Shown: piece by piece, positions 17,086 through 39,790 of the stretch
How the letters are laid out: each line of letters starts with the position of its first letter
How positions within the stretch are numbered: position 1 is the first letter of the stretch
Source of the DNA: Flagellimonas sp. 389
GTDB lineage: Bacteria > Bacteroidota > Bacteroidia > Flavobacteriales > Flavobacteriaceae
Assembly (NCBI RefSeq): GCF_018449435.1
Contig: NZ_JAHCMU010000001.1
Coordinates: 279,299-343,298, forward strand
Direction: 5' to 3'
Length of the DNA: 64,000 nucleotides
Notes under the pieces: generated by a model
What the model saw: only the letters and a program-made list of their open reading frames with translations
Database searches by the model: none
Told to the model about the DNA's origin: nothing
Program-made: the position numbers and the translations under genes

Positions 17086-17731
17086 AATTACCGAAGGTGG
17101 CGTGGAATACTCATTGGGGAAATTTGATGGAAAAAGTGTTATTTATGACTTTCCAAAAATTTTGATTTATTTGAATGCCAAGGGAAAGTTGCTCTTTGGT
17201 AAAAATTTCAAAATTTATGATGAAGACAAGGATATTCTACTGAAGCTCTGTTCTTATTTTATTAGGGATAAAGATAACTGTGCCGCCTACGGAATTGACA
17301 TTGAAAAAGGAATTTTACTTTCCGGACCAGTAGGTTGTGGAAAGACTAGTTTGATGAAGCTTTTGCGCCACATAGTTCCGATGCAACGCCCTTACGAAAT
17401 GATTCCTTGCCGGAATGTGACTTTTGGTTTTAACCATCTTGGTTTTAAAACTGTTGAGGAATATGGGAACACCAAATTCTATTGTTTTGATGACCTTGGT
17501 GTAGAACCTGCAGGACGGTTTTATGGCAAAGACTTGAACGTAATGGGCGAAGTTCTCTTGTCTAGATATGAACTCTATCTCGATACCAAACACAAAATCA
17601 AAACTCACGCTACTACGAACCTTAATGCTGAAGAACTTGAAGAACGTTATGGAAATCGTGTTCGTAGCAGAATGCGTGAATTGTTTAATTTGATTGCTTT
17701 TGATAAGGGGGCTGGGGATAAGAGGAAATGA
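17069..17731 (+). CDS. DnaC-like P-loop ATPase
   Basis: A 220-residue AAA-type ATPase, related by eye to DnaC/IstB helicase-loader ATPases. Walker A is GPVGCGKTSLMK (about residue 88-99), Walker B FYCFDDLGVEP (about 147-157), followed by a sensor-like THATTNLNAEEL and arginine-finger-like NRVRSRMRELF. The start chosen is ATG 17069, which overlaps the upstream gene by 17 bases and gives the full fold; the open frame goes further upstream but runs through the other gene. With the preceding protein it probably forms the element's replication-initiation pair. It ends 33 bases before the convergent response-regulator gene. Confidence 0.8.
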   Translation: MDNPSKITEGGVEYSLGKFDGKSVIYDFPKILIYLNAKGKLLFGKNFKIYDEDKDILLKLCSYFIRDKDNCAAYGIDIEKGILLSGPVGCGKTSLMKLLRHIVPMQRPYEMIPCRNVTFGFNHLGFKTVEEYGNTKFYCFDDLGVEPAGRFYGKDLNVMGEVLLSRYELYLDTKHKIKTHATTNLNAEELEERYGNRVRSRMRELFNLIAFDKGAGDKRK

Positions 17732-18862: not shown

Positions 18863-18864
18863 AA

Positions 18865-21090: not shown

Positions 21091-22319
21091 TTTAGCTGTG
21101 CTTTAATCTGTTTTGCTATCTCTTTTGCCATCAAAGGTGGTACAGCATTTCCTATTTGTCTAAAAGCAGCACTTCTGCCTCCTTCAAAAAAGAAGTCGTC
21201 TGGGAATGATTGAATCCTAGCAGCTTCTCTGACAGAAATAGACCTTATTTGCTTGTTGTCAGGGTAAATGTAATGATGACCATCTTTCGCTATATGCGCA
21301 ACCATTGTATGAGAAAGACCGTTGATATCAACAACTTTGTATCTATCAACGAATGATGTTTCGTTCTTATGAGTTTTGAGTTCAGTCGGTAAATCTGGAT
21401 ACTTTAATCTTTCTGATTTTTTCAGCCATTTGTTTATAGCGATTTTGTAGATATTTAAATCTCTTTCATTGTGCGGTCTCGCTATATGTTGAGTAACAAA
21501 ATCAACTCCATTTCTTAATTCAAACTTTTCAAGATATGTAGTTGTAGGTTTAGCATATTTTGTTACATTTTTTTGGTCGCCAGCTTTTATTTTTTTTAAA
21601 TCAGATAGAATTTGACTTATAGTAAATTCTTCATTGAGGATATCAAATTTTGGGTACTTAAAATCTGTGCCTTTTTGCCAACCGATTAAAATAATTCTTC
21701 TTCTTTTTTGTAATACTCCGAAATGCTCAGACTTTTGAATTGTATAATCTAATTCATAACCAATACGCTTAAAATATGCTTGCATATTTTTAAAATAACT
21801 TCCTTTTTCAGCAGTTATTAATCCCATAACATTCTCAAAAACGAATACTTTTGGCTCGTATTTTTTAAGGAATTTTGCGTACTCTTTATAGAGGAAATTC
21901 CGAGGGTCATTTTTCATACCATCTTTATCTCTTGACCTTCCGACAAGAGAGTAGGCTTGACAAGGTGGGCCACCGACAATTAAGTCAATTCGTTTCCCAT
22001 TGACGAGTTTGTCTATTTTTTCAAAAATGATTTTGTTGTTATCTCCTCCAATTGAAATATTTATGACGGAATCGGAAAGTTCAGAATTACCAAAGCATTT
22101 TATGAACTCTTCTCTGGTCATTTTTTCTGAAATGTAATCGTAATATTTTTCTGTTCTATTTTCAGAATTTAACTTATGATATATCAGTCGTGTTTCTAAA
22201 GTATCACAGGCTTTTTTGTCTATTTCTACGTGGGCAATTGGCTTGAAACCTGCCTTGATAAAACCTTCAGATAAACCACCTGCACCTGAAAATAAATCTA
22301 TGAAATTAAGGTTTTCCAT
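21087..22319 (-). CDS. DNA (cytosine-5)-methyltransferase
   Basis: A 410-residue C5 DNA methyltransferase. The motifs are complete: I (DLFSGAGGLSEGF, residues 8-20, SAM binding), IV (GGPPCQAYS, catalytic Cys120), VI (ENVMGL), VIII (QKRRRIILIG), IX-X (REAARIQSFPDDF ... RQIGNAVPPLMAKEIA). Between VIII and IX lies a target-recognition region of about 120 residues; the recognised sequence cannot be read from it. No restriction endonuclease gene adjoins; instead the kinase and response regulator follow in one operon. It could mark self DNA for a system whose effector is among the partner genes, or be an anti-restriction methylase of the ICE. Confidence 0.93.
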   Translation of the reverse strand: MENLNFIDLFSGAGGLSEGFIKAGFKPIAHVEIDKKACDTLETRLIYHKLNSENRTEKYYDYISEKMTREEFIKCFGNSELSDSVINISIGGDNNKIIFEKIDKLVNGKRIDLIVGGPPCQAYSLVGRSRDKDGMKNDPRNFLYKEYAKFLKKYEPKVFVFENVMGLITAEKGSYFKNMQAYFKRIGYELDYTIQKSEHFGVLQKRRRIILIGWQKGTDFKYPKFDILNEEFTISQILSDLKKIKAGDQKNVTKYAKPTTTYLEKFELRNGVDFVTQHIARPHNERDLNIYKIAINKWLKKSERLKYPDLPTELKTHKNETSFVDRYKVVDINGLSHTMVAHIAKDGHHYIYPDNKQIRSISVREAARIQSFPDDFFFEGGRSAAFRQIGNAVPPLMAKEIAKQIKAQLK

Positions 22320-22726: not shown

Positions 22727-23362
22727 TCATAACGTTAATTGAAATTTTCTTATTAATACTAGAGCAATACTTTTACTTCTTTTTGTCAAATATTTACTTT
22801 CATCCCAATTACTCAAAAACCCTAATTCCAAAAGGACAGAGGCGCAATAGCTTATTGTTTCACGTAAGACCTGAAAATTTGCAAACTTTACACCCCTACT
22901 CTCAAAACCCAGCTCAAAGTTCAGAGCATCTTGTAATTGAAAAGCAAACCAAGTAGATGTTCTAGAATATATCGATTGCTTTTTTGAAACATAAACTTCG
23001 ACACCTCTTGCATTTGCATTATCCGAATGATTACAATGCAAGGACACAAATAAATCAGCTTTTAGGGCTTTGGCCAGCTTCGACCTATCGGATAAAGAAA
23101 CAAGTGTATCGGTATACCTTGTAAAGTAAATATCCAAAGGGGTATCAGATTCGTTATTTAGCTTCAAAATGGCATTTGCAATATTGAGTACAACATCCTT
23201 TTCTTGGATTCCATTTATGCCTATTGCACCAGCATCTTTTCCACCGTGTCCAACATCAATAACAATTCGTTTTTGAGTACTCGATTCTTGTCCAAAAATG
23301 ATGCACATTTTGAAGAGCAAAATCAAAAAACTAACGTTTTTAAGCACTTTTTTCATTTTCAA
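22727..23362 (-). CDS. N-acetylmuramoyl-L-alanine amidase (Amidase_3), exported
   Basis: A 211-residue zinc amidase that cuts the bond between muramic acid and the stem peptide of peptidoglycan. A signal peptide ends near FGQE (residue 24); Zn ligands and catalytic residues are seen in DVGHGGKDAGAIG, IQEKDVVLN, FVSLHCNHSD and the final catalytic Glu in VLLELGFLSN. It lies between the cargo operon and the plus-strand tra genes. In conjugative elements a wall hydrolase is usually needed to open peptidoglycan for the mating channel, so I infer that role. It is divergent from traE. Confidence 0.9.
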   Translation of the reverse strand: MKMKKVLKNVSFLILLFKMCIIFGQESSTQKRIVIDVGHGGKDAGAIGINGIQEKDVVLNIANAILKLNNESDTPLDIYFTRYTDTLVSLSDRSKLAKALKADLFVSLHCNHSDNANARGVEVYVSKKQSIYSRTSTWFAFQLQDALNFELGFESRGVKFANFQVLRETISYCASVLLELGFLSNWDESKYLTKRSKSIALVLIRKFQLTL

Positions 23363-23869: not shown

Positions 23870-24154
23870 ATGAAGAAATTCGAGGTCTATAAAAACATTA
23901 GAAAAAGGGCAGTCATTTTTGGGCTGCCTATTTCCCTGTTCGCCCTAATGATGGTGTCTATTTTGGCTTCGCTGCTCATTATCATTTTCTCTTTCAGTTT
24001 CGGGATAATAATTGGCGTTCTCGTTTTTAATGCTGCCTTATATGTAGCCCTCACGAGAATAACACTTAACCCACAACTATTTCAAATGGCTAAAGCCTTC
24101 CCAAGAATAATAAGTAACAAAAGAAATTCGGGCTTCGATTATGAACAAGATTAA
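23870..24154 (+). CDS. traF: Conjugative transfer protein TraF (DUF4133, VirB3-like)
   Basis: A 94-residue membrane protein with two hydrophobic helices in residues 16-60 and a basic tail, matching DUF4133 (TraF of CTnDOT). VirB3-like proteins anchor the VirB4 ATPase at the inner membrane; accordingly the next gene is the VirB4-like TraG, whose ATG lies 14 bases inside this gene. Confidence 0.88.
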   Translation: MKKFEVYKNIRKRAVIFGLPISLFALMMVSILASLLIIIFSFSFGIIIGVLVFNAALYVALTRITLNPQLFQMAKAFPRIISNKRNSGFDYEQD

Positions 24155-26543
24155 TCTTTCGGCATATAACCCTATTGCAGATGTTCAGGACAATATCATA
24201 TTTGCCAATAATGGCAATGTCGTTCTGTGCTATAAAGGAACGCTACCAGAAATTTATTCCCTATCAGAAAAAGACTTTGAGGATATACACGGCGCTTGGT
24301 TTCAGGCTTTAAAATCTTTACCTATTGGCACGGTGGTACAAAAACAGGATATCTACCTTAAAAAGAGTTACACTTCAGAAGAACTGCCGAAAACAACTTT
24401 TTTAGAAAAAGCTACACACGAGCATTTCAAAGGACGTGATTATATGGAACATCGTTGCTTTTTGTTCTTTACACTCACTAAGAACAAGGCTCTAAATAAT
24501 TCAAAATATGTCAACCCTTTTCGTAAAGTTTCTAAAGGGATTGTTCAACAATTAGATGACAACGTTAAGAGCTTCATTGGCTCGGTTAGTGATTCGGTTT
24601 CCTTTATAAACAATAGCCGAAAAATGACCTTTGTCCAGCTTAAAGCGAAAGACATTCAGCACCTCACAAATGGTTATTTCAATGGATTCAATGAAGGTTT
24701 TGATACGGACATCATATTAGAAAAGAAAAGCGTCAATATTGGCGAAAACCATTTTGATGCCCTGGCTATCAATAGCGAACTGTGCTTTGGCGAAAGTGTA
24801 CAGAGTAGCAAGACCAATGAGAAATTCACTTCTGACGATTTCGTGTTTCATCAAGGGTTTATTGATGGCTTAGGGCTTACGCTTAATGAGAATCATATTG
24901 TTAATCAAATCCTGTATTTGGATGATAAACAAAAGTGGCGCAAGCTTCTAGATAAGAAAGTTGAAGAACTCAACAAAAGTTCCAACTTCGGTTCACAGAA
25001 CAAAGTGGTACTTGGTAAAATTCAACATATTCTCGACCAAATCAATGCAGATGACAATGCACGGATTATTCGTGGTCATCTCAACATCGTCTATTGGGAT
25101 AAAAACCCTGAAAATTTAAGTCGAATCGGTTCTAAAATCAAAACTGAATTTAAGGAACTGGATATTATCCCATATTATCCAAGAGGTGAGGAACGGAAGA
25201 ACTATATACTAAATAGTTACTGCTGTTTTTCTTCCAACTTTTCAAATAACGATTTATATGTAACGGATTTAAAACACGCACTATGCTTGTTTATTAATAA
25301 TACAAACTACAACTCGGATGCTACTGGAATTATCTTTAATGATAGAGAACATAACGTTCCAGTTCTAAAGGACGTTTGGGACGAACGCAAGAAGCGTATC
25401 AAAGCACGAAACTTTGCCATTTTTGCACCTACTGGCGAAGGGAAGTCCTTTTTGGCAAATAACATTCTACGCCAATATTTTGAGAGTGGTGTCCGCCTAG
25501 TCATTATTGACCTTGGTGGATCCTACACCAAATTTGTCAAACTCTATCCTGAGAAATATACGGTGCTTCGTTATGAAAGTGGCAAAAATCTGGGTATTAA
25601 TCCTTTTTATATAAGCGATGTGAATGACCTGACCCCTGAACGTTTGGAAGACTTGTCCGTCTTCCTGTTTGAACTGTTCGCTTCAGATTTAAAGGTTACT
25701 AAAGCGCAGTCGGTTTCAGTCAAAAAGATTCTTCGTCACTATTATGATAGCACTTCAGAAAATCATTCCTTGGATGGTTTTTACAACTTTATAGAAAGGC
25801 ATCAGAAAGAGCTTCTGAACACCCTAAAAATCCATCCCGACTACTTCAATGTTACGAGCTTTTTGCACGTAATGTCAGAATATGTCGGCGATGGTCTATA
25901 TAGCTTCTTATTTGAAGTCAGCGAAGACCAGACCTATAAAATTGAGGACAAAAGATTGATAGTTTTTGAACTAGATGAAGTCAAGGACAATAAGGAAATT
26001 CTATCTGTAATGTTGAAGCTGATTAAGTCGGCTATCCAAAGAACTATTTGGAAGAATCGTGCTGAAAAAGGCATCATCCTTTTCGATGAGTTTGCAAAGC
26101 AACTGAAATTCGACAACGTACTGGAAAGTGTAGAATTCTACTATCAAGCGATACGTAAACAAAATGGTGCGATTGGGATTATTCTTCAATCCATAAACCA
26201 GCTTCCCAATAACTCAACGTCAGCTAGCATATTAGAGAATACGCAGGTCATTTACAGCCTTAACAACGAAAAAGGCTATGACGAATTGGTCAAAAGGCTC
26301 AACCTCTCAAGTCACGACTTGAACCAATTAAAGTCCATCAAAAATAATCTTTCCGGACCACGGAAGTACACCGAAATTTTTATCAAGATTGGGAAGGAAA
26401 GCAACATCTTTCGGCTTGAAGTTCCTAAAGAAGTCTATGCAGCTTATCTGACCGATGGCCAGGAAAATGAGGAAATAATGAAGCTCTACAATGAGCATCA
26501 CGATATGGAAAAAGCAATAATTCAATTCACATCTAAAACATAA
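24141..26543 (+). CDS. traG: TraG conjugation ATPase (VirB4-like)
   Basis: An 800-residue ATPase that powers assembly and function of the type IV secretion channel. Walker A is APTGEGKSFLANN near residue 432, Walker B GIILFDEFAKQL near 645, followed by the conserved glutamine region IGIILQSINQLPNN and the IYSLNNEKGYDELVKRL segment of TraG/VirB4 proteins. The length is close to the usual 830 of CTnDOT TraG. It is followed after four bases by traI. No unusual features. Confidence 0.93.
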   Translation: MNKINLSAYNPIADVQDNIIFANNGNVVLCYKGTLPEIYSLSEKDFEDIHGAWFQALKSLPIGTVVQKQDIYLKKSYTSEELPKTTFLEKATHEHFKGRDYMEHRCFLFFTLTKNKALNNSKYVNPFRKVSKGIVQQLDDNVKSFIGSVSDSVSFINNSRKMTFVQLKAKDIQHLTNGYFNGFNEGFDTDIILEKKSVNIGENHFDALAINSELCFGESVQSSKTNEKFTSDDFVFHQGFIDGLGLTLNENHIVNQILYLDDKQKWRKLLDKKVEELNKSSNFGSQNKVVLGKIQHILDQINADDNARIIRGHLNIVYWDKNPENLSRIGSKIKTEFKELDIIPYYPRGEERKNYILNSYCCFSSNFSNNDLYVTDLKHALCLFINNTNYNSDATGIIFNDREHNVPVLKDVWDERKKRIKARNFAIFAPTGEGKSFLANNILRQYFESGVRLVIIDLGGSYTKFVKLYPEKYTVLRYESGKNLGINPFYISDVNDLTPERLEDLSVFLFELFASDLKVTKAQSVSVKKILRHYYDSTSENHSLDGFYNFIERHQKELLNTLKIHPDYFNVTSFLHVMSEYVGDGLYSFLFEVSEDQTYKIEDKRLIVFELDEVKDNKEILSVMLKLIKSAIQRTIWKNRAEKGIILFDEFAKQLKFDNVLESVEFYYQAIRKQNGAIGIILQSINQLPNNSTSASILENTQVIYSLNNEKGYDELVKRLNLSSHDLNQLKSIKNNLSGPRKYTEIFIKIGKESNIFRLEVPKEVYAAYLTDGQENEEIMKLYNEHHDMEKAIIQFTSKT

Positions 26544-28645: not shown

Positions 28646-29575
28646 ATGAAAGTAGAAAAAAACAAAATAGTATTTGCTTCGGTATTGGCTGTGATTTTCA
28701 TATTCCTTATTTCCTATTCAATGATGGTTATGGGTGATGATGAAAACGAGAACGAAAACCTTGAACAGACCTTAGTACCGGACTTGGACGAAAACCAAAA
28801 AGAATATGATTCCAAGCTTGATGCTATCAATGACCTAAAGGAAGTGCGCGAGAATAACGCACCCAGCATCTACGATGAAAAACTTTTAGATTCCACAGGT
28901 CTTTACAATCCTGATTTGCCAGAACTTGAAAAAAAACGCATTGTGGATAGTATATACAATGCAGGTAAAATTCAATACTCTGACAAGAAATACAGAAACT
29001 TAGGGCAAAAGAAAGTTGCGCAAAAGAGCGCACAACAAATCGATTCAGCCGAAATAAAAAGAGAACAAAAAATTGAAGCCAAAGAATTAGGGCTAGAACA
29101 TCAGTTATTTTTTGCTGCTTCGCCAAAACCCAATGAAGTTTCAATTATTGGTAATACAGATGAAACGATATATGTGGTTGTCGATGGCGACCAGATTGTC
29201 AAAGCGAACACTAGATTACGGATGCGCCTAACCAAATCGGCTACTATTAATGGTAAGCCGATGCCAAAGAATACGCCAGTTTTTGGTTTTATCAGCTTTC
29301 AGCCAAATCGTGCCTTAATCGAAATTGAGAACATAAAGCATCATCCTACCAAACTAATGGCATTCGATTTGCTCGATGGTAGCGAAGGCATCTATGTACA
29401 GAACAATTTTAGAGCAGAGGCTACTACTGAAGTTTTGGATGATGTTATTGGTGATATCAATATCCCAACTGTTCCGCAAGTAGGCGGAATTACACAGGTA
29501 TTTAGACGACGCAATCGAAGTGTGAAGGTAACTGTGCTCAACAACTACAAATTAATTCTAAAACCAAAATTATGA
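28646..29575 (+). CDS. traM: Conjugative transfer protein TraM (VirB10-like)
   Basis: A 309-residue protein with an N-terminal membrane anchor (FASVLAVIFIFLISYSMMVMG), an extended acidic periplasmic linker (residues 30-150, rich in Glu/Asp/Lys), and a C-terminal beta domain (VVVDGDQIVKANTRLRMRL, NTPVFGFISFQPNRALIEI) as in TraM/VirB10, which links the inner- and outer-membrane parts of the channel. Order between TraK and TraN is that of CTnDOT except that no TraL gene is present. Confidence 0.9.
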   Translation: MKVEKNKIVFASVLAVIFIFLISYSMMVMGDDENENENLEQTLVPDLDENQKEYDSKLDAINDLKEVRENNAPSIYDEKLLDSTGLYNPDLPELEKKRIVDSIYNAGKIQYSDKKYRNLGQKKVAQKSAQQIDSAEIKREQKIEAKELGLEHQLFFAASPKPNEVSIIGNTDETIYVVVDGDQIVKANTRLRMRLTKSATINGKPMPKNTPVFGFISFQPNRALIEIENIKHHPTKLMAFDLLDGSEGIYVQNNFRAEATTEVLDDVIGDINIPTVPQVGGITQVFRRRNRSVKVTVLNNYKLILKPKL

Positions 29576-29606: not shown

Positions 29607-30437
29607 ATGAAAAAGTATATTATAATTTCAGCCCTCATTATTTCCGCTTTCGCGAAAGCACAAATAAACGTAGCATTAGATACCATTTATGCAAACGATA
29701 CTAAAAACGTTGCGCTATTTTTTCCAGAACCCATAAGACAAGGCATAACCGGTTCGGATAATTTTGTCTTTAGTTATAATCGTGAAAAAGAACAGTATTT
29801 TGGATTACTTCAGGCAAAGCCCGGGAAGGAAAGTAATCTACTGGTAGTCAATAGAAATGGTGCAATTTTTTCGTATATTGTAAGATATAAAAAGCAGCTG
29901 TCAAAGCTCAATTATTTTATCCCATTATCAAATAGTATTGGTAATGAGAAGCCAATCGTAGCCGATTCGATTCAGGTTGTAACTTCTGAAAAAAATATAG
30001 ATAACAGAACCTACTATTATCAAAAATTCTGCACCTATCTTCTTAACAGAAACCAACGCATCGGTCGGATTAAGAAGCGCACACAGGGCATCGTCTTGAC
30101 CGTTGAAAATATAGTTTTTGATAAAGAAGAACTCTATTTTGTCATTCAGATTGAGAATAATTCTACGTTGGATTACGATTTGAATTTCTTGAACCTTTTC
30201 ATCGAGACTCGACAAAAAGGGAAAAGGAAATCCTTACAGAGTTTATATCAAGAACCTATTTACAAGCACCATTTGCTGTCAAAAATTGCAGAAGGTAAAA
30301 TGGTAAGATTGGTTTATGTAATGCCTAAATTCTCGTTGTCCAATGACCGTAGGGCAATTTTAGAATTGAACGAGAAAGATGGTGAACGCAATATAAAACT
30401 GAACATATCACACAGATGTATCAATAACCCAAATTAA
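29607..30437 (+). CDS. traN: Conjugative transfer protein TraN (DUF4138, VirB9-like)
   Basis: A 276-residue exported beta-rich protein; the signal peptide ends at SAFAKAQ (residue 20). The core (NVALFFPEPIRQGITGSDNFVFSYN, LLVVNRNGAIFSYIVRY) fits DUF4138, the TraN of CTnDOT elements, which corresponds to VirB9 in the outer-membrane core complex. The codons for SAFAKA form the palindrome GCTTTCGCGAAAGC found five times in the element. It is the last recognisable tra gene of the operon. Confidence 0.9.
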   Translation: MKKYIIISALIISAFAKAQINVALDTIYANDTKNVALFFPEPIRQGITGSDNFVFSYNREKEQYFGLLQAKPGKESNLLVVNRNGAIFSYIVRYKKQLSKLNYFIPLSNSIGNEKPIVADSIQVVTSEKNIDNRTYYYQKFCTYLLNRNQRIGRIKKRTQGIVLTVENIVFDKEELYFVIQIENNSTLDYDLNFLNLFIETRQKGKRKSLQSLYQEPIYKHHLLSKIAEGKMVRLVYVMPKFSLSNDRRAILELNEKDGERNIKLNISHRCINNPN

Positions 30438-30820: not shown

Positions 30821-32479
30821 TTATTTTACGAAACGATGATATAAATATGGTAATGGAAGCTGTTTATGATGAAATGATGCAATGTGATGTAAAACCTCCA
30901 TACCCAAGTTGTAGGGCTTGAATTCTCTAGCCTCTACAAACTTTTCTCGTAGTTCAATTATGTTGTTTTTATACTCCTTGAATGACGGTATATTCTTAAA
31001 TGAAAAAACGTTACCGGACTTAGCACAATACCCCTCAGCTAAACAGATATCTACGGTATCTTCTGTTGGATACCAAGTCTGAATACTTATTTTTTCTTCA
31101 AAAAGCTTAATAAGCTCTATAACCTTGTCGTATGTTTCCTCTGAATCTAAAATAATACACCAATCAAGTATACTCGCTAACAACATTGAAGATTCTAATT
31201 TTTGTTTTGATTTACCAAAATATATGTCAACTAACTTTTCATAGTCTGGTCTAAAGAGCGGAAATAATTGTTTTATGCGATATTGATTATGAAGTGATAT
31301 CAGGATTTTCTCAATCCAATTTAAACAAAAATCATCTTTTTGGTACATCCGTAGAAACTGCATTGCTAAGTTAAATTCTATCAAATGGTTGTCATATAAA
31401 GGATAATTTAAAGATGAATTTTTTGAAATAAAGGATGTCAAGGATTTGTTCACATCTGTAAGTGAGCGCAAGAATATTTCTTGCCCCGCTTTATTTTTAG
31501 TTTGAAGATATACCCAATATTGTTGCAACTCAAAATGACCAAGAATAGAAATTAGCCCCAATTCTTCCCAAGTTCTTAAGCCATACTCCAAATGGTTTTT
31601 TGAGTAGCGCTGTACGCTCTGTTCCACAAAATAATGGTCATTGACTTTATTATAATAATCTACAGCAATTAGGCGACTCAAGCTGTAAATTTTGAAATAT
31701 TCTTCTTGAATGTATTTAAGCTTTAGTTTGTTACTCTTTGTTAAAAAGTTATACGTTTTCAACAGCGTTATATGGCTAAGTGTAACTGCAGATTTTAGGT
31801 TACCAACTTCATCGCTCCACTTAAACATTAAATCCAATAATAATTTTATTAAACGTATTAATTTTTGAAGTTCACGTTTTCTCAGGATTGCCTTATCAAA
31901 AAGAGCATCTAATAGCTGAATATAATGATGATATTGATAATCAGTTAAGTCCATAAATGCCAAAGTCTTTCGAAATAATGCCTGATTCTCTTTATCAAGT
32001 AATGTATCAAATAGAAAATCATCTTTTACTTGATTTGTAATATCATCAATACCTAAAAAGTCAATAACAATATTATCCTTACTATGTTTTTCCTTAAATG
32101 AAGTCCAATCTAAATCTAAGTTTTGTGAAATGACACCATTCGTTGCTAGTGTGATTCTTATAGGAAGTTTTTGTTCTTGTTGTGTAAGATGTTTATTTAA
32201 ATAAACTTCAAGAATTTCTTCAAGAGATTGTTTGGCTGCGTTAACACTACCGTTCCAAGCACTTCTCGTGATATTATCTCGTTTTACGGTTAAAATTCTA
32301 ATTTCAACAACTTTTTGCTTTTCTTTTTTAAATGCTAATATGTCAACACCGTATTGCCTACCCTTTTCTGGTTTGTATTTAATAGTATATCCTTGCTCAA
32401 AAAGTAGGTCTGCCAACAAAGAATCTAACTCTCCGTCTTCCTTAAGAATTGATATGTATTCACGAATTATAAAGTTCAT
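30821..32479 (-). CDS. PD-(D/E)xK-like nuclease with long helical domain
   Basis: The protein has 552 residues from the ATG at 32479. The open frame reaches 32533, but that start would overlap the upstream gene by 74 bases instead of 20. The N-terminal 100 residues look like an Mrr-type restriction-endonuclease fold: a helix with Glu (LLADLLFEQGYTIKY), then RQYGVDILAF and VEIRILTVKRDNITRSAW, giving the Asp and Lys of a D-x(n)-xxK site. The remaining 450 residues are alpha-helical without a motif I recognise. It overlaps the preceding gene, so both products likely act together. Low GC and position between tra and mob genes mark it as cargo, probably defence. Nuclease assignment is moderate. 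Confidence 0.65.
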   Translation of the reverse strand: MNFIIREYISILKEDGELDSLLADLLFEQGYTIKYKPEKGRQYGVDILAFKKEKQKVVEIRILTVKRDNITRSAWNGSVNAAKQSLEEILEVYLNKHLTQQEQKLPIRITLATNGVISQNLDLDWTSFKEKHSKDNIVIDFLGIDDITNQVKDDFLFDTLLDKENQALFRKTLAFMDLTDYQYHHYIQLLDALFDKAILRKRELQKLIRLIKLLLDLMFKWSDEVGNLKSAVTLSHITLLKTYNFLTKSNKLKLKYIQEEYFKIYSLSRLIAVDYYNKVNDHYFVEQSVQRYSKNHLEYGLRTWEELGLISILGHFELQQYWVYLQTKNKAGQEIFLRSLTDVNKSLTSFISKNSSLNYPLYDNHLIEFNLAMQFLRMYQKDDFCLNWIEKILISLHNQYRIKQLFPLFRPDYEKLVDIYFGKSKQKLESSMLLASILDWCIILDSEETYDKVIELIKLFEEKISIQTWYPTEDTVDICLAEGYCAKSGNVFSFKNIPSFKEYKNNIIELREKFVEAREFKPYNLGMEVLHHIASFHHKQLPLPYLYHRFVK

Positions 32480-34058
32480 CTTTTGAAATGTATCTGAAAT
32501 GTAGTCTTTTTGCCTGTTGCCCAATTGGGTCAATAAATTCTAATCTTGGCATTTCCATTGAATGAGAAATACTTTTTGGTTCCATTACCTCTGTGAAACC
32601 TTGTTCAGTTTTTGAAAAGAAACCTTTACCCACTCTTAATCGTGTTTTGTCTGCGAAATCTAAAAATGATGGTTTCCTATTTTCAATTGCTTCATTACCT
32701 AGACCACTAAATTGGACTTTATTATAGTAAGACAATCTCTTTTCAGATGGATTAAATTCATCGTGAATTGGAAGATTGCTTAGTCGGTTAAAAAAATCGT
32801 CCGCTTTACCCGTAATTTGTTTAATTATAGCTTTGTGTTTTTTATCAGAGACTTTTTCCTTACTAAGTTTTTCTATCAATGACGGGTAATTTAAAAGCAA
32901 TTCAGAATAAATTAAACTTGCGGTATGATTTATTATTTCCTGTGATTCAAGATTCTCTGCCAATATTTGAAAGAGCATTCTATAGGCAACATCTTTATCC
33001 CAAGCAAAACCGATTACTCTCAAAGCCAATAGAATAGTTTCCTCTTCATTCAATTCTTTTATCCAAGCACTATCTAATTGCAAGGAATCTCTTGTGCTTC
33101 TAATTTCACTAATCACATATTGAACTGCAAGACCATAATTATGTGATTTTAATAGCCAGGTTGATATTAGCTTATGAAAATACTTTGAATTTTTATCGTT
33201 GAAATTGTTCAAAAGATGCTCTAAAACTTGCATACCATTTGCACTTGGCAAATGAAAATCAATCCAATTTTCAAGAAATATTTTGATAATCTCAGGATTG
33301 GAGTCGAAAAATTTATCTAGCGAAAAATTTAAAGAATTGTAAATGCCAGAATATTGAAGCGGAACTTTTGCAAGATGCTTAATTGACAGATGAAATAGCT
33401 CCTCATTTTTCTGTAATTCAATAAAAGAATTTAAAGCTCTAACTAGTGCAGAATAGATATACGATGATTCAATTTTAAAGAGCTCTTGTATTCTACTATT
33501 AAATTTTGGAAAATCCTCTAGATGACGAGTATAAAAATTCATCAAGTAGGCCCAATCAATGTCTTCAAGAATTTCTTTAAACTTATTGATGTCTATTAGC
33601 TTGTTGATTCTATCGCAAAAGGAGTGTTTTTCTTCAAGGTTAATTATTGTTGCTGCGCGAAACCCGGCAGAGATTCTGAAACTGACATCGGATTCTATAT
33701 TGTTGATTATTTCGTCTACAAAGTCTTCACCGACCTTATTCAATCCGTAAACAATACTTGCCCAAAACTCATAAGTATCCCTTGAAAGGTTCTTCTCAAT
33801 TTCTTCTTTTATTTGTTTAGCAATTTCTGGGTTGGTCTCAGAGTACTTCTCAAGCCAAGTGTAAAATTGACCACTTGAAAAATCAGATTTAAAAAACTCG
33901 TTTATACTAGCAAAACAGCTTACGAAAAGCTCAACATCTTCTATATTATTATGTTGGTAAAATTGCTGAATATCCCTCCAGAATTGGAACTTTTCAATAC
34001 TACGCGTATTGACTTTTTTTAAAAATATTAAAGAAGAAAAATCACCTTTGGTGTTCAT
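32460..34058 (-). CDS. Unrecognised helical-repeat protein, partner of nuclease-like gene
   Basis: A 532-residue protein made of repeated amphipathic helix pairs (for example FKEILEDIDWAYLMNFY, ALVRALNSFIELQKN, LALRVIGFAWDKDVAYRM), resembling HEAT/TPR-like scaffolds, with a final 90-residue segment of different character (SFLDFADKTRLRVGKGFFSK...MEMPRLEFIDP). No enzymatic motif is visible and I cannot name a family. It starts the two-gene minus-strand operon (stop overlaps the nuclease-like gene by 20 bases). Its upstream gap of 48 bases separates it from hipA on the same strand, so read-through from the HipBA promoter is possible. Confidence 0.7.
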   Translation of the reverse strand: MNTKGDFSSLIFLKKVNTRSIEKFQFWRDIQQFYQHNNIEDVELFVSCFASINEFFKSDFSSGQFYTWLEKYSETNPEIAKQIKEEIEKNLSRDTYEFWASIVYGLNKVGEDFVDEIINNIESDVSFRISAGFRAATIINLEEKHSFCDRINKLIDINKFKEILEDIDWAYLMNFYTRHLEDFPKFNSRIQELFKIESSYIYSALVRALNSFIELQKNEELFHLSIKHLAKVPLQYSGIYNSLNFSLDKFFDSNPEIIKIFLENWIDFHLPSANGMQVLEHLLNNFNDKNSKYFHKLISTWLLKSHNYGLAVQYVISEIRSTRDSLQLDSAWIKELNEEETILLALRVIGFAWDKDVAYRMLFQILAENLESQEIINHTASLIYSELLLNYPSLIEKLSKEKVSDKKHKAIIKQITGKADDFFNRLSNLPIHDEFNPSEKRLSYYNKVQFSGLGNEAIENRKPSFLDFADKTRLRVGKGFFSKTEQGFTEVMEPKSISHSMEMPRLEFIDPIGQQAKRLHFRYISKDELYNS

Positions 34059-34105: not shown

Positions 34106-35356
34106 TTACCATCTAAAAGCCCCTTCCATCAATTCTATTTCGGCATTTTTTATTCCTATACCTTTTGCCACATCTTTCCAGTTCTTAACAACGGAAAGCA
34201 CTTCATCCAAAATAGTTTCCATTTCGCTTTCGCTTAAACGAAAATACTCGCCAACACTTTTAGCCAAATCAAAGTTTAAAGTATTATCATCCATATCTAT
34301 ATTTAGTGAAAGTCCATCTTTTTCTATGGATGGATTCAAATCATAGGCTGGCGATAAAATCCAACCTTTATCGGTTAGTATAAATCCGTGATTTCGCAAA
34401 TGGTCATCGGTGTTTGAAATAGCAATATTGAAAACGATGCGTCGCCAAAGCTGATGCAAATTGGCTTCTACATCTGCACCATAATTTTCTATAAACTCTA
34501 CAATTTCAAGATAACTTGGTGCAGATTCCTTTATGATATCTTCCGTATTTCCTGTCATCGTCATAGCGGATGCAAAGTGAATGCGCTTTCCATTGTCTCT
34601 ATCAAACCGTCTTGTTAGGAATGTGTGATACTGACCGCTAATCTTCTCTATTTTAGAATCTACCATTTCTATACCCGCAGCAGTAGCTAATTGATAGGCT
34701 AAAAACTCCCAAGCAGCTTTGTCAACCGTATCTGTTTTTGACGGAAATTTGGCAATCCATAGATTTCCTTGGGTATCAAAAATGTTAGCTTTTGGTCGGG
34801 CACCACCTAATGAAGAACCTGGCGCAATCAGTACTGCAATCCATTTTCGTATATCATCATTTTGTTCGTCACTTTCTAACTGTTTGACGGCTTCTTGCAA
34901 ATCGCCCAATGATGACCAAGGTGGTGTTGGCGTTCTATCATCATTATCTAAAAAAGGACCTTCTAAATCTGTTTTGAAGCGCAACGCACCCATTCTACTT
35001 TCATCAAAAACCCCAAGTAAATAATCTATTTCATAGAGTGTACGGGCCTTTTCATTATTTGCTCTAGCATCTTGGGCAGCCCTACGTTTCATTAAAGTCT
35101 TTCCCCAAGTGTCTGGCATACTATCTAAAAAGATTCCGAAATTCTCTTTGTTGGTTGGATATTGCGGACCAGAATAAAAATCAATGTCCGGGTCTAACAA
35201 TCGTTGTGCATCGGTTTTTAACCAATCTTTATCATACTCAAAACTGAATGCTTTTTTTCCCTTGGCAAAATGTGCCGATAAAGTTCCTATTAGTGTTGGT
35301 TCTTTAAGACCTACCCAATCAGCAAAAACATATATGTCAAATTTTCCTGTTGCCAT
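34106..35356 (-). CDS. hipA: HipA-type serine/threonine kinase toxin
   Basis: A 416-residue HipA-family kinase. In Enterobacteria HipA phosphorylates glutamyl-tRNA synthetase and halts translation; the substrate here is unknown. Seen: HipA N-terminal couple domain (FADWVGLKEPTLIGTLSA), the P-loop/autophosphorylation segment PGSSLGGARPKANI (about residues 193-206), TRRFDRDNGKRIHFASAM, catalytic loop NIAISNTDDHLRNHGF (Asp about residue 318) and the metal-binding Asp in LSPAYDLNPS. All key residues are present, so it is probably active. It follows the antitoxin gene by five bases on the minus strand. Confidence 0.93.
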   Translation of the reverse strand: MATGKFDIYVFADWVGLKEPTLIGTLSAHFAKGKKAFSFEYDKDWLKTDAQRLLDPDIDFYSGPQYPTNKENFGIFLDSMPDTWGKTLMKRRAAQDARANNEKARTLYEIDYLLGVFDESRMGALRFKTDLEGPFLDNDDRTPTPPWSSLGDLQEAVKQLESDEQNDDIRKWIAVLIAPGSSLGGARPKANIFDTQGNLWIAKFPSKTDTVDKAAWEFLAYQLATAAGIEMVDSKIEKISGQYHTFLTRRFDRDNGKRIHFASAMTMTGNTEDIIKESAPSYLEIVEFIENYGADVEANLHQLWRRIVFNIAISNTDDHLRNHGFILTDKGWILSPAYDLNPSIEKDGLSLNIDMDDNTLNFDLAKSVGEYFRLSESEMETILDEVLSVVKNWKDVAKGIGIKNAEIELMEGAFRW

Positions 35357-35361
35357 CTTTC

Positions 35362-35649
35362 TTATAATAAATCAAGGTCTTGAAGTTTTCTGCCAAATTC
35401 ATCATCAACTGCTAGCTTTTTAAAATCATCTTCCAAGTTGAGAACTCTGAAAACATTAAAATAAGAACCTATGGCAACCGCTGGGTCGCCTTTTTCTATT
35501 CTATACAATGTAGTCCGATTAATACCCGCACGTTCGGAAACCTGCTCAGCCGTGAGCTTTCTTCGCTTTCGTGCTAGCTTTATATTCTCGCCCAATTGCT
35601 CAAATACTTTCTGATATTTTGGTAACAGAACTGTTTTCTTAGAATTCAT
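35362..35649 (-). CDS. hipB: HipB-type XRE antitoxin
   Basis: A 95-residue helix-turn-helix protein: NIKLARKRRKLTAEQVSERAGINRTTLYRIEKGDPAVAIGSYF is a typical XRE domain (residues 19-61), with a short C-terminal tail ending FGRKLQDLDLL. It should neutralise the adjacent HipA and repress the operon by binding upstream repeats; a 10-base inverted repeat occupies the divergent promoter region at 35653-35699. Confidence 0.9.
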   Translation of the reverse strand: MNSKKTVLLPKYQKVFEQLGENIKLARKRRKLTAEQVSERAGINRTTLYRIEKGDPAVAIGSYFNVFRVLNLEDDFKKLAVDDEFGRKLQDLDLL

Positions 35650-35706: not shown

Positions 35707-36699
35707 ATGATATCCAGAAAAGAACTAAACGAATTGTATAGAAATCCGGCTAAGCCAAAGGATTACGACCAAATTGTACAGGCTCTCTGCAACAAGGTTT
35801 TCAACAATGAGGAAATTTCTCTAGCCGAAGAACAATTTGTCGGGGGAATCATTGAGCAATTAAGAGATAAGAATAATCAACGTACTTTTAAAATTGAAGA
35901 TTATGAGAATTGCGTAAACTATCATTTTAGAAGTAGATACATAAGGTATGTTAATGACCTCAATGGACATAAAGAGGTAATGGACTATGATGGTCCCATA
36001 TCTACTGTACGGAAAAAAAAGGATGTGGCATTTCTTCAGAAAACCTATGAAGAATGGAAAGTATATCTTAAAGATAAAACAAATGGTTTTCGGCTTATAA
36101 ATTATGTTGCGCAAGAAACCAATTATCAACTAAAACAACTCGATAAGTTTGCAGACAAACTAAAAATTGGTGCCAACTACAAAGAGTATTTGCAAAAGAC
36201 CTTAGTACTTCACGGTAAATACATTTATCTTTTAGTAGCCGAATTCTACCAAGAACTGGGAAAGGATGAGGAAATCATTGACCTTAACGGCAATAGGGTT
36301 TTGATAGATGGATTTACCTATGTCCATACAATGTTCAGACACTTCTCTTCTCACATTAAACAGCATCAAATGCAAAAATCTTATCATTTTGACAGCAACA
36401 TCGGTTTTAAAGAGATACCCTATTTTTTGACAGATGCAATCCGTTCATATACGATATTACCTGAGAGTAGTTCATTCGACCAAAGAAGAATTTATTTTAG
36501 CTACAACTCGAACCCCTACGCAATTTGGTTCAGACCTTTCAAAAAGGATTTAAAAGGTGGAAAAAGAGAGGAATACTTGAGAGCGCAAACCTTTTATCCC
36601 ATAGAGAATCACCAAGAGCTCTCTAAATTATCTGATATGGTACTCTTAAAGGGCAATAGCACCTTTTCTTTTTATCACAAAACAGATTCTAAAAAATGA
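35707..36699 (+). CDS. Unrecognised protein co-encoded with PD-(D/E)xK nuclease
   Basis: A 330-residue soluble protein which I do not recognise. Visible parts: a helical, charged N-terminal half (residues 1-180), including a predicted helical bundle LINYVAQETNYQLKQLDKFAD, a central stretch TYVHTMFRHFSSHIKQHQMQ with several His, and a beta-rich end (RRIYFSYNSNPYAIWFRPF...LRAQTFYPI). The end segment vaguely recalls small RelE/Barnase-like phage-associated nuclease folds, but this is only an impression. It is followed after one base by a nuclease-type gene, and shares its control region with HipBA. ATG at 35707 lies 22 bases after the predicted promoter. Confidence 0.65.
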   Translation: MISRKELNELYRNPAKPKDYDQIVQALCNKVFNNEEISLAEEQFVGGIIEQLRDKNNQRTFKIEDYENCVNYHFRSRYIRYVNDLNGHKEVMDYDGPISTVRKKKDVAFLQKTYEEWKVYLKDKTNGFRLINYVAQETNYQLKQLDKFADKLKIGANYKEYLQKTLVLHGKYIYLLVAEFYQELGKDEEIIDLNGNRVLIDGFTYVHTMFRHFSSHIKQHQMQKSYHFDSNIGFKEIPYFLTDAIRSYTILPESSSFDQRRIYFSYNSNPYAIWFRPFKKDLKGGKREEYLRAQTFYPIENHQELSKLSDMVLLKGNSTFSFYHKTDSKK

Positions 36700-36700
36700 T

Positions 36701-37180
36701 ATGACAAAACCATTTATACGTTCTATAATCCGGAAATCATTGATGGAACTTTATTCAAAAGATGCATTGTTAATGGATTCCGCCTATGATATCAACGAAA
36801 GAACGGTGACTCATCGGCTCGCAATTTATTTAGAATCTTACTTTCAGAAATATGGATATATAGTGGATGTAGAATATAACAGGATGAGAGGCGATACTGT
36901 CGGAGATGCTGTTGGAAATTTGATGGGTAAACGGCTTAATTGGGAAGAAAATGAACAGGGCTCAAGTTATGTTTATCCTGATATTATCGTACACATAAGA
37001 GATACTGACGACAACTTGTTGCTCATTGAGGTTAAAATGTCCTGGAAAAATGTGAAAAAAAGTGATGACCTTCTCAAAATAACCGAATACATAAAAGAAA
37101 TCGGCTATCAATATGGTGTTTATATTGAACTATCTCCAGATATTGAAAATAGTCAAATCCTATTCGGACCATTTAATTAA
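36701..37180 (+). CDS. Small PD-(D/E)xK nuclease-like protein
   Basis: A 159-residue protein with the pattern of a widespread single-domain nuclease family: ERTVTHRLAIYLESYF (helix with conserved Arg/His), VDVEYNR, YPDIIVHIR and LLLIEVKMSWKN. Asp in YPDI and Glu/Lys in IEVK are the expected active-site residues. Its function is unknown; it often appears as cargo of mobile elements. It is coupled to the preceding unknown gene (one-base gap) and its end overlaps the convergent mobC gene by eight bases. Confidence 0.72.
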   Translation: MTKPFIRSIIRKSLMELYSKDALLMDSAYDINERTVTHRLAIYLESYFQKYGYIVDVEYNRMRGDTVGDAVGNLMGKRLNWEENEQGSSYVYPDIIVHIRDTDDNLLLIEVKMSWKNVKKSDDLLKITEYIKEIGYQYGVYIELSPDIENSQILFGPFN

Positions 37181-38753
37181 ATATCGACCGCACATCATCA
37201 TAAACCCTTTCAAAATTGGTTGTCAATTCAGCTTGTGAAAACTGCTTTGTTTCTTCTGGCAACTGTCTTTTAATATTAGCTAATTTAAACTGCACTTTCT
37301 TATCCCGCCCGTCAGCATAGGTAATAAATTCGCCTTGTTTCAACCTGAAGAAAACATCGGCTCTTATCTTTGGGATTTCCTTTTCTCCCGTAGTAATGCG
37401 CGTATCAAAATCTAGATTATGACCACGACTTATACTCTTGGTCGGGTCTTTTATTATTTCAAAAAAACGTTCGTAGTATTTAGCAGTATCTGGGTCATTT
37501 ACCTTACCAAAAAACTGATAGGATAGATTGCTCAATATGGCTTTACTTGCCTTATCTCCATACATCATATCGTTCTGAATTTTGTCCTGCATCACGTAAA
37601 TAGTAGCGATGTCGTAACTACGCAACGTTGCAGGAATTCGATGCATATTCAATAATCGGATGGTAGGCGCTTCTTCCATCAACAAAAATGAAGGTTTTGA
37701 ATTTCGCACACTCATTTGCTTGGTAATCGTGTGAATAATAGTTGCGATTACAGGCGAGTAAGAGGTCTCAAATTTTGGGTTGTTCACTACGGAAATGATT
37801 GCAGGATTATTTTCGCTATTAATATTCAGTGGTACTTCGTCTCCGGACAATGCCATAAAAATGCGTTGTGTGCTAATTCGCTTTAGCGCATTGGCCAGAG
37901 TACTTTTTACACCAGCGGTCTGCCTATCTGAATCCTTGCCACTAATAAAAGCATCAGCCATTGCTCTCGATGTTGTATTTGTTTCTAAAAATTGGATAAG
38001 ACTATCCGTGTCCAATAATTGATAAATAGCTATTAAATGAGGTAGGGTGCAATATTTAGGATAGTCAGTTTTTAGTTTCCAAATCAAACCACCAATCAAA
38101 CCTTCAGCAGCATCGTTGAAGAATTTTGTCGTGCCAGTTGTTCCGCTTTCTCTTTGCTCTAAAAGGTTTTCAATTAACACCCGTGACACCTCATTTACGC
38201 TTTCCTCGTTCTCTAAATAGCGTGGTGCAATAGGATTTACCCGATGGATAATTTTATCAAAGGAAATAACCTTAAACGGAATATCGCTATCCTTGAAAAG
38301 TGGATATGCCATTTCAGTAAGCTCGAAATCTTTGTAATCGTGGATGATACCACAAAAACCTTCCTTTCGAAAGTGTTTCAAGAATCCATATGCAACGCTT
38401 TCGGTTTTACCACTTCCCGCAGAACCTATGATAGATGCGCCACGTTTAATATTGTCTAATTTAAAATTGCCTTTGGTGGTAGCGAAGTTGACCTGATATT
38501 TACCTTCGCCATTTATCGGCTCGTCCGTTTTATGAAGAAACACATACATTCCTATGTTAATTAATATGAGAGGGCAAACCAAATACAGGGCAATAATAGT
38601 CAATGCGTTTTCCTCTTTTAAATAAAAGACCATTGCACCAAGCACGAGAATATTGATGATAAAGGCATACCGACTTACCTGAAAAACCGCATAGAAAACG
38701 ATACTGGTCAGTCCAATAATTGAAAGTGTCGTTATGAGATTATCTACCTGCAT
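37173..38753 (-). CDS. mobC: MobC coupling protein (VirD4/TraG-type T4CP)
   Basis: A 526-residue inner-membrane ATPase that recruits the relaxase-DNA complex to the secretion channel. The first 75 residues hold two to three membrane helices; Walker A GSAGSGKTESVAYGF is near residues 108-122 and Walker B SFLLMEEAPTI near 354-364. The segment YVMQDKIQNDM with its Gln is typical of VirD4 proteins. It sits six bases behind the relaxase gene in the order mobA-mobB-mobC, the usual one in Bacteroidota conjugative elements. Confidence 0.9.
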   Translation of the reverse strand: MQVDNLITTLSIIGLTSIVFYAVFQVSRYAFIINILVLGAMVFYLKEENALTIIALYLVCPLILINIGMYVFLHKTDEPINGEGKYQVNFATTKGNFKLDNIKRGASIIGSAGSGKTESVAYGFLKHFRKEGFCGIIHDYKDFELTEMAYPLFKDSDIPFKVISFDKIIHRVNPIAPRYLENEESVNEVSRVLIENLLEQRESGTTGTTKFFNDAAEGLIGGLIWKLKTDYPKYCTLPHLIAIYQLLDTDSLIQFLETNTTSRAMADAFISGKDSDRQTAGVKSTLANALKRISTQRIFMALSGDEVPLNINSENNPAIISVVNNPKFETSYSPVIATIIHTITKQMSVRNSKPSFLLMEEAPTIRLLNMHRIPATLRSYDIATIYVMQDKIQNDMMYGDKASKAILSNLSYQFFGKVNDPDTAKYYERFFEIIKDPTKSISRGHNLDFDTRITTGEKEIPKIRADVFFRLKQGEFITYADGRDKKVQFKLANIKRQLPEETKQFSQAELTTNFERVYDDVRSIFN

Positions 38754-38758
38754 ACACG

Positions 38759-39790
38759 TTAAATTCCAATGGAACTTGATTTAATTGCTATTTCAGCGCC
38801 ACGTCTTAATCTTTTGAAAACACGTAGCGCAATTTGCGCCTGACTTACTGGAATACCTGGCACAACAGGCAATCCTGATTTGCTTATGATTTTGAATGCC
38901 AATGCCTTCTCGTTGGCTGGCAGTTTCATCAAGGCAGAAAAGTAAAGATTTGGGTTCTTGACAAATGTTTTTTTCGCCTTGTAGGTCTCTGCATAGTTTC
39001 GCTTATATCCAAAAGTTTTATCAAAGGTTTGTTCCGCTTTCGCGAAAAACGCATCACGGTCAAAACCTCGTTTTACAGTTTTACCGTGCATTTCAACTTC
39101 TGAAGCTTTGTGTTTGCTACCAGGTGAAAGACTTACAGAATTAGAAGCATCCTTTCGGCTCACGATGATATGGATGTGGCTTTGCTCACCGTCCTTTTTC
39201 ATTCCTTGGACTATCCGTTTTCCATTTTGTTGGTGCGGTGCTTGTTTTTCGAGTTTAGCAATTTCCTTTTTCATCCTCTTAATATTTCCCTCAGCTCGTC
39301 CTTCTTGGATATTTCGAATTTCCGTTTTGAGCTGAAGTATTTTCGTTGCATACGGTTGGTTTTCTTTAATCTGAAAATCTGTTCCTTTAAAAGTTCTCAG
39401 ATGTTCGATTTTCGCAAAGTATTTTACATCATCAACCGTAATGGGTCGTCCGTTAATTTCCCGATTAAAGGATGCCACATAATCCTTCATCAACTCACGA
39501 GTGTACGCCTTTAAATCTTGGCTGTTATTTTGCAATTTTCTTAATTCATATTTTGAAGGACTGACTGTAATCGAATAAAACTTGGGTTCTTTCTTTTTCA
39601 GTTTTGCGGTGTTACCGCCAATTTCCTTGACCACTTCTTCAGCGGAAATCTCGTCGCTATATTGATTAAAAAAATGTTCCATATCCTGTTGTTCCAAACC
39701 TTCATTTTCTTTCTCTAAATAGCCTACAAAATCCGCTGAACTTTGTGAGTAATTGTTGCCCAATTTTTGAGGTGTGATTGTGATATACAT
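38759..39790 (-). CDS. mobB: Relaxase/mobilisation protein (DUF5712, MobB type)
   Basis: A 343-residue protein that probably nicks DNA at oriT. It has the His-rich relaxase motif SHIHIIVSRKD (about residues 205-215) that binds the metal, and an N-terminal NNYSQSSADFVGYLE with Tyr residues that may provide the nucleophile; it matches the DUF5712 group of Bacteroidota relaxases. The middle is a coiled coil (residues 150-190). It follows the BtgA-like gene by 11 bases and precedes mobC. The candidate oriT lies upstream of that gene. Confidence 0.85.
   Translation of the reverse strand: MYITITPQKLGNNYSQSSADFVGYLEKENEGLEQQDMEHFFNQYSDEISAEEVVKEIGGNTAKLKKKEPKFYSITVSPSKYELRKLQNNSQDLKAYTRELMKDYVASFNREINGRPITVDDVKYFAKIEHLRTFKGTDFQIKENQPYATKILQLKTEIRNIQEGRAEGNIKRMKKEIAKLEKQAPHQQNGKRIVQGMKKDGEQSHIHIIVSRKDASNSVSLSPGSKHKASEVEMHGKTVKRGFDRDAFFAKAEQTFDKTFGYKRNYAETYKAKKTFVKNPNLYFSALMKLPANEKALAFKIISKSGLPVVPGIPVSQAQIALRVFKRLRRGAEIAIKSSSIGI

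What the first reader, a model, noticed from the sequence alone, without database searches (positions are those of the whole stretch)
30821..34058. Overlapping pair: Mrr-like nuclease and helical-repeat protein of unknown family
Two AT-rich minus-strand genes overlap by 20 bases between tra and mob modules. The second has an N-terminal D...xxK fold (GVDILAF, EIRILTVKRD) followed by 450 helical residues; the first is a helical scaffold with no motif. Large nuclease plus scaffold pairs in ICE cargo are often antiphage systems (inference), and I cannot match this one to any named system.
Basis: partly seen in the sequence, partly recalled or inferred. Interest (0 to 1): 0.7.

Follow-up and report, generated by a model that had tools for sequence, protein, structure and literature searches.

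The report
Olokun antiphage gene pair
Two overlapping genes riding on a transferable DNA element of a bacterium are a copy of Olokun, an already named but poorly understood bacterial defence system against viruses, in which one protein looks like a DNA-cutting enzyme and the other like a coil-shaped scaffold.

Summary
In detail: two intact minus-strand genes, 532 aa (32460-34058) and 552 aa (30821-32479), overlap by 20 bp between conjugation genes. The claim that no named system fits does not hold: PADLOC identifies them as OloA (3.1e-69) and OloB (2.8e-118), the two proteins of Olokun. OloB residues 1-150 are predicted as a PD-(D/E)xK nuclease fold resembling AF1548, MspJI, NucS and EcoT38I. 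The rest of OloB and most of OloA are helical solenoids; OloA ends in a conserved tail that is unstructured in the single-chain model. An OloA-like neighbour was found at 37 of 37 OloB loci examined, one unscanned. Near-identical oloAB (98-99%) sit in diverged element backbones (69-90%), so the module moves on its own. Most likely mechanism: OloA senses infection and licenses OloB to cut DNA. The nuclease step is strongly implied; sensing, complex and target are inference. New member of a known kind. Side finding: the PADLOC Olokun profiles also recruit a second two-gene family without detectable homology to this OloB.

The parts
30821..32479 (-). oloB: 552-aa nuclease-fold protein, ATG start; stop included
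   Evidence: PADLOC OloB 2.8e-118, profile 1-549 of 556; translation; start supported by homologues
32460..34058 (-). oloA: 532-aa helical-solenoid protein; stop included
   Evidence: PADLOC OloA 3.1e-69, profile 77-595 of 596; its closest homologues are 526-558 aa, so it is probably full length
32460..32479 (-). 20-bp oloA/oloB overlap, probable translational coupling (inference)
   Evidence: sequence; overlaps of 1-20 bp in most homologous pairs
32030..32479 (-). OloB residues 1-150: predicted PD-(D/E)xK nuclease domain
   Evidence: AlphaFold2 model; AF1548 Z 9.8, MspJI Z 8.9, NucS Z 7.8, EcoT38I Z 7.7
32438..32440 (-). codon of OloB E14, possible helix-1 acidic ligand (with E17 and D19)
   Evidence: E14 34 of 34, E17 33 of 34, D19 34 of 34; ligand role inferred
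32342..32344 (-). codon of OloB D46, predicted metal ligand (GxQxGVD)
   Evidence: 34 of 34; role inferred from the fold
32282..32284 (-). codon of OloB K66, predicted catalytic lysine ([STA][VI]K in most rows; ExK in three)
   Evidence: 34 of 34; role inferred from the fold
30911..32017 (-). OloB residues 155-523: helical-repeat region
   Evidence: AlphaFold2; matches to helical-repeat proteins
32775..33941 (-). OloA residues 40-428: HEAT/ARM-like solenoid
   Evidence: AlphaFold2; PP2A-A and importin scaffolds Z 8-11 with large rmsd; Pfam HEAT_2 1.2e-06 in one of 16 homologues
32484..32771 (-). OloA residues 430-525: conserved C-terminal tail (ExxPS...GK...SxSxExPRxxxIDPxG), low confidence when folded alone
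   Evidence: conservation; pLDDT under 50 for 449-532; kept in the 300-aa OloA of Klebsiella plasmids
34106..35649 (-). hipB (35362-35649) and hipA (34106-35356), same strand directly upstream; neighbours that travel with oloAB in three elements, not counted as part of Olokun
   Evidence: HipA_C 1.8e-51 and HTH families; also beside oloAB in L010 and L012

Best explanation
The pair is an Olokun antiphage system carried as cargo by a conjugative element. OloB is a metal-dependent PD-(D/E)xK nuclease (acidic residues from helix 1, D46 and K66) on a helical-solenoid body. OloA is a HEAT-like solenoid, co-translated with OloB through the gene overlap, that binds OloB through its conserved C-terminal tail and senses an infection signal with its less conserved N-terminal solenoid. 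On sensing, OloB is licensed to cut DNA, so phage replication stops, either by cutting phage DNA directly or by killing the infected cell. Shown here: gene identity, pairing, predicted fold, conserved catalytic-type residues, mobility. Inferred: the OloA-OloB complex, the sensor role, the trigger, and DNA rather than RNA as target.
For: PADLOC OloA/OloB. Nuclease fold with D46 and K66 in 34 of 34 and helix-1 acids in 33-34 of 34. OloA-like neighbour at 37 of 37 OloB loci: 34 by iterative search, two by PADLOC (L036, L048), one (L050) only by position and resemblance to L048. OloB is better conserved than OloA in 14 of 14 rows present in both alignments, and dN is lower (0.16 v 0.23 for window-L011; 0.14 v 0.27 for L044-L047). 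The short OloA of two Klebsiella plasmid loci keeps only the C-terminal half and tail. Defence- or toxin-antitoxin-type genes beside several copies. One printed table lists Olokun under nuclease activity (PMC10855318, passage).
Against: No assay of this copy. The acidic residue of ExK is missing in most members (S/T/A at position 64 in 25 of 34, E in 3), so activity could be weak, unusual or lost. The models rest on 9 and 10 sequences, near-duplicates included, with moderate confidence (mean pLDDT 73 and 66). Foldseek alone gave no OloB match at E 0.001 and no nuclease among the 50 rows shown; the nuclease rows come from the VIA second look, with Z 7.7-9.8, where values under 8 may mean only a common arrangement. 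Nothing tests the OloA-OloB contact. The OloA profile also rings in 2 of 14 control genomes, so it is not very specific. Several copies (for example L035, L040-L043, L046) have no recognised defence gene next to them, though their neighbours were not scanned. In the same order of 14 of 14, OloA's lower identity could also be looser constraint rather than sensor evolution.
Confidence: 0.6

Rival explanations
1. OloB is a type IV-like restriction enzyme that recognises modified or foreign DNA itself, and OloA is a DNA-recognition or assembly subunit rather than an infection sensor.
For: The nuclease-fold matches include MspJI, a restriction endonuclease (its dependence on modified DNA is recalled); helical solenoids can bind nucleic acids (recalled); OloA accompanies OloB throughout.
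Against: No SRA, winged-helix or other DNA-recognition domain was found by Pfam in window OloA and OloB or at E 0.05 in 17 OloB and 16 OloA homologues; the non-nuclease part is predicted helical.
Confidence: 0.2
2. OloAB mainly protects its element against competing plasmids or conjugative elements rather than phage.
For: Eight copies, the window's included, lie in cargo positions of one family of conjugative element; 34 plasmid records carry an OloB homologue.
Against: Seven hits lie in viral contigs, and two of three E. coli copies looked at lie beside prophage tail genes (the third, beside insertion sequences), where an anti-phage role is at least as natural.
Confidence: 0.1
3. hipB-hipA-oloA-oloB works as one four-gene system in which HipBA regulates or backs up Olokun.
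For: Same strand, with gaps of 5 bp (hipB-hipA) and 47 bp (hipA-oloA); hipBA and oloAB sit together in window, L010 and L012.
Against: 17 of the 19 fetched OloB loci compared with the window have no homologue of this HipA in the stretch fetched; hipA has diverged more than oloAB (95.0 and 88.8% v 97.8-99.3%).
Confidence: 0.07
4. The pair is an inactive passenger.
For: ExK is degenerate in most members.
Against: Intact frames; purifying selection on both genes; D46 and K66 in 34 of 34.
Confidence: 0.03

Closest known systems
Olokun (OloA + OloB); original description Millman et al. 2022 (recalled; the paper is not held)
   Same: Both proteins match the PADLOC profiles over most of their length; gene order oloA-oloB; E. 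coli pairs found in 14 of 5426 genomes by DNA similarity to a viral-contig pair are of the same kind.
   Different: 20-23% identity to OloB of the proteobacterial plasmids and 22-27% to those of the viral contigs; OloA about 40-50 aa shorter than on those plasmids; hipBA directly upstream.
MspJI and AF1548 nuclease domains (PD-(D/E)xK, Mrr-like fold; class names recalled)
   Same: Predicted fold of OloB 1-150: MspJI Z 8.9, 3.5 A over 127 residues; AF1548 Z 9.8, 2.6 A over 110.
   Different: 8-16% identity; OloB carries a helical-repeat body and works beside a separate OloA.
Lamassu (LmuA nuclease effector)
   Same: A defence nuclease working with partner proteins (recalled).
   Different: Window OloB matched no LmuA profile at E 1; only the second two-gene family does.

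Membership tests
Olokun | OloB homologue over full length | tested here: met
   2.8e-118, profile 1-549 of 556
Olokun | Adjacent OloA homologue | tested here: met
   3.1e-69, profile 77-595 of 596, 20-bp overlap
Olokun | Same protein family as Olokun-type pairs of E. coli | tested here: met
   E. coli OloB (L073) aligns with the window's and shares E14, D46 and K66; which E. coli pair was tested experimentally was not checked
Olokun | Phage protection that needs both genes | not testable with these tools
   needs an experiment
PD-(D/E)xK nuclease superfamily | alpha-beta core of the fold with D and K at the ends of neighbouring strands | tested here: met
   predicted order of elements and structural matches; D46 and K66 in 34 of 34; a model, not a solved structure
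PD-(D/E)xK nuclease superfamily | Acidic residue two before the lysine (D/E-x-K) | tested here: not met
   T64 in the window; E in 3 of 34 rows; such substitutions are known within the superfamily (recalled)
Mrr restriction enzymes (PF04471) | Mrr_cat above gathering score | tested here: not met
   13.5 bits against 21; 1 of 17 homologues, best E 0.038
HEAT-repeat proteins (OloA) | HEAT profile match | tested here: inconclusive
   no Pfam match in window OloA; HEAT_2 1.2e-06 in 1 of 16 homologues; solenoid by model

The most novel reading that the evidence does not exclude
Olokun is a solenoid-gated nuclease: the less conserved N-terminal solenoid of OloA is an interchangeable sensor, and its conserved, partner-dependent C-terminal tail is the clamp that holds or licenses the OloB active site. 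A second, unrelated two-gene family (large partner plus a 490-498-aa protein with a C-terminal nuclease-like motif), which the PADLOC Olokun profiles pool with it, reaches the same plan by convergence.
Probability: 0.25. Interest if true: 0.5.

Novelty: new member of a known kind. Interest (0 to 1): 0.3.

Why it matters
The locus goes from unknown to named, with a residue-level hypothesis for a system that one held paper calls not thoroughly characterised (PMC12592470, passage) and another's table puts under unknown mechanism (PMC12926258, passage). It names mutants to make (D46, K66, E14/E17, the OloA tail), natural short-OloA variants to test, and shows Olokun moving as a module between cargo positions of one family of conjugative element. 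It also warns that the PADLOC Olokun profiles may count a second family.

Tried and rejected
Rejected: E59 as a catalytic residue (not conserved). Rejected: OloA as a truncated remnant, suggested by the profile match 77-595 and by a read-through match with three stops: the related OloA of L011, L034, L039-L047 and L049 are 526-558 aa. Rejected: homology of OloB to solved proteins by sequence (no match; the profile matches look like coiled-coil chance) and of OloA (looks like chance; the best match is a designed helical-repeat protein).

Led nowhere: OloB in 50,697 phage records (no match); viral-contig scans with P0001, P0002 and the alignment A3 (no relative); an OloA-based viral scan returned two contigs already held; literature on an Olokun mechanism (six papers hold 'Olokun' and 'phage'; five were seen in passages, and none of those passages gives a mechanism; PMC12390725 was seen in the listing only; of the 78 papers only 40 were listed). 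Foldseek without VIA listed no nuclease among its 50 rows for OloB.

Rows left out of the 34-row counts: L037 (second family, removed), L010, L070, L074 and L075 (near or exact duplicates, not added), L012 (cut by contig end), L063 (broken). Only 10 of the 34 plasmid records and 3 of the 14 E. coli genomes were fetched.

Full report
Observation. Both genes exist as described. The downstream gene most likely starts at ATG 32479, not at the mechanical TTG 32533, giving the stated 20-bp overlap; most homologues start at the same point. Flanking genes form a Bacteroidota-type conjugation set (type recalled): TraG P-loop ATPase 24141-26543, TraM 28646-29575, DUF4138 29607-30437 and DUF5712 38759-39790, coupling protein 37173-38753. 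Integrase and element ends were not determined, so 'ICE' is used loosely.

Identity. PADLOC gives OloB 2.8e-118 (residues 1-547 to profile 1-549 of 556) and OloA 3.1e-69 (20-527 to 77-595 of 596). Pfam and NCBIfam give no significant family for either. So this is Olokun. The original paper is not held; PMC10121019 (passages) lists Olokun as a defence system described in its reference 7, which I take to be Millman et al. 2022 (recalled). E. coli homologues (14 of 5426 genomes, found by DNA similarity to the L069 pair, each covering at least 80% of it) are of the same family; one pair (L073) is in the alignments.

Distribution. OloB profile: 8 of 395 sampled genomes of the phylum and 0 of 14 control genomes; 14 of 397 of the family. 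Of the 8, three (G366, G159, G316) turned out to be another protein family (below), leaving 5 of 395. The OloA profile found 8 of 395, two of them weak and without an OloB match (G182, G365), and 2 of 14 controls. The window's genome has one copy. Elsewhere: 34 of 72,556 plasmid records, 0 of 50,697 phage records, seven viral contigs, two of which give the same frames.

Pairing. Of 42 loci put through iterative search, 37 hold an OloB of the window's kind; 34 of those 37 have an OloA found by the same search, and none of the other five has. In two of the remaining three (L036, L048) PADLOC calls the neighbour OloA at 3.8e-60 and 1.5e-74; the last (L050) has a neighbour that aligns like L048's but was not scanned. 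Overlaps are 4, 17 or 20 bp in most loci and 1 bp in L036; E. coli has a 1-bp gap; in L054 transposase genes lie between the two; L063 is fragmented beside an IS3 transposase; in L061 and L062 OloA is only 300 aa. The 42 include duplicates (L067 and L070).

OloB. The AlphaFold2 model (9 sequences, mean pLDDT 73) has an N-terminal domain with main elements H-H-E-E-E-H-E-H-E. In the VIA second look, five of the 50 rows shown lie within residues 1-161, and all five are proteins of this nuclease fold: AF1548 (Z 9.8, rmsd 2.6, 110 aligned), MspJI twice (8.9, 3.5, 127; 8.6, 3.3, 133), the P. abyssi repair endonuclease 2vld (7.8, 3.3, 104) and EcoT38I (7.7, 3.8, 127) (the fold of AF1548 and the name NucS for 2vld are recalled). 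Foldseek alone showed helical proteins. In 34 OloB rows E14, L18, D19, G40, G44, D46 and K66 are invariant and E17 is 33 of 34; position 64, where ExK nucleases have the acid, is S/T/A in 25 and E in 3; E59 is E in 3. The missing acid may be supplied by helix 1 (inference). Residues 155-523 are helical repeats.

OloA. The model (10 sequences, mean pLDDT 66) is a solenoid over about 40-428, with PP2A-A and importin scaffolds as neighbours (Z 8-11, large rmsd in many rows, so only the general class is meant). Residues 449-532 have pLDDT under 50, yet the block 481-520 is the best conserved (mean top-residue share 0.43, against 0.26-0.34 for the blocks between 1 and 360; short N-termini in some rows lower the latter). 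A conserved tail unstructured on its own suggests a partner-bound segment (inference). OloA is less conserved than OloB in 14 of 14 rows shared by the two alignments (for example 29 v 40, 25 v 36, 17 v 23%), and its dN is higher (0.23 v 0.16, 0.27 v 0.14; dS saturated). This is what a sensor-effector pair would show, but looser constraint would show it too.

Mobility. Eight loci, the window included, share the window's element backbone. oloAB lies between the tra module and the coupling protein in window and L010 (and in L012 as far as its contig goes), but between the homologues of 16841-17731 and of 22727-23362 or 23546-23833 in L011, L044, L045, L047 and L049; in the window that second position holds a restriction-modification-like module (17765-22319). 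Against L010 (Tamlana sedimentorum) oloB and oloA are 98.7 and 99.3% identical in DNA and hipB 98.6, hipA 95.0, while the twelve other shared genes compared are 69-90%; against L012 (Aquimarina) oloA is 97.8, and so is the oloB end present, while five of the neighbouring backbone genes are 75-85%. The cargo has been exchanged between related elements more recently than the backbones diverged (inference).

Mechanism. I commit to a sensor-scaffold (OloA) gating a metal-dependent nuclease (OloB), 0.6 overall. Phage protection by this copy, the complex, the trigger and the substrate are untested.

Side finding. Three PADLOC OloB hits (L037 at 2.3e-50 and L053 at 1.2e-11; L007 at 4.3e-12) are 490-498-aa proteins with a C-terminal motif of the kind GGGxTDLxYKGIxIELKVEK that also match the C-terminal end of an LmuA profile. 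They have no detectable similarity to window OloB by BLASTP (L037's only), profile-profile comparison (probability 0.4%) or iterative search, but two of them are related to each other at 1e-29 and all three align. Each overlaps an upstream ORF of 834-891 aa; two of those three match the PADLOC OloA profile (L037's at 1.8e-62; L053's at 7.3e-10), and the third was not scanned alone. The simplest reading is that the PADLOC profiles pool two families (inference; the seeds were not seen).

Noticed in passing
L037:7669-11662, L053:4072-8240, L076:5957-9923: A second two-gene family recruited by the PADLOC Olokun profiles but without detectable homology to the window's OloB; possible C-terminal nuclease shared with LmuA. 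In L076 a neighbour looks, by eye only, like a type I methylase.
   Followed up: partly
35707-37180: Gene 36701-37180 matches PADLOC PD-Lambda-3_A (8.2e-24); its neighbour 35707-36699 has no significant match. The pair recurs in L012 (86.3 and 99.4% DNA identity).
   Followed up: partly
L010:4811-6829: At the place of that pair, Tamlana has a different pair (176 and 484 aa) with no Pfam match at 0.01 or PADLOC match at 0.001: a candidate unknown cargo system.
   Followed up: no
17765-22319: Three-gene minus-strand module: cytosine methyltransferase (DrmMII/Dcm type), a 741-aa protein with a BbrUII-like start and a histidine-kinase-like end, and a 365-aa protein without a significant match.
   Followed up: no
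34106-35649: HipBA pair travels with oloAB in three elements, two of them in named records of different genera (Tamlana, Aquimarina).
   Followed up: partly
L011:11725-15309: 1194-aa protein with HNH-effector-like start and nSTAND3 domain directly after oloB in a Maribacter contig.
   Followed up: no
L061:4096-4998, L062:4006-4908: Klebsiella plasmids carry a 300-aa OloA that keeps only the C-terminal half; a natural test of which part of OloA is needed.
   Followed up: partly
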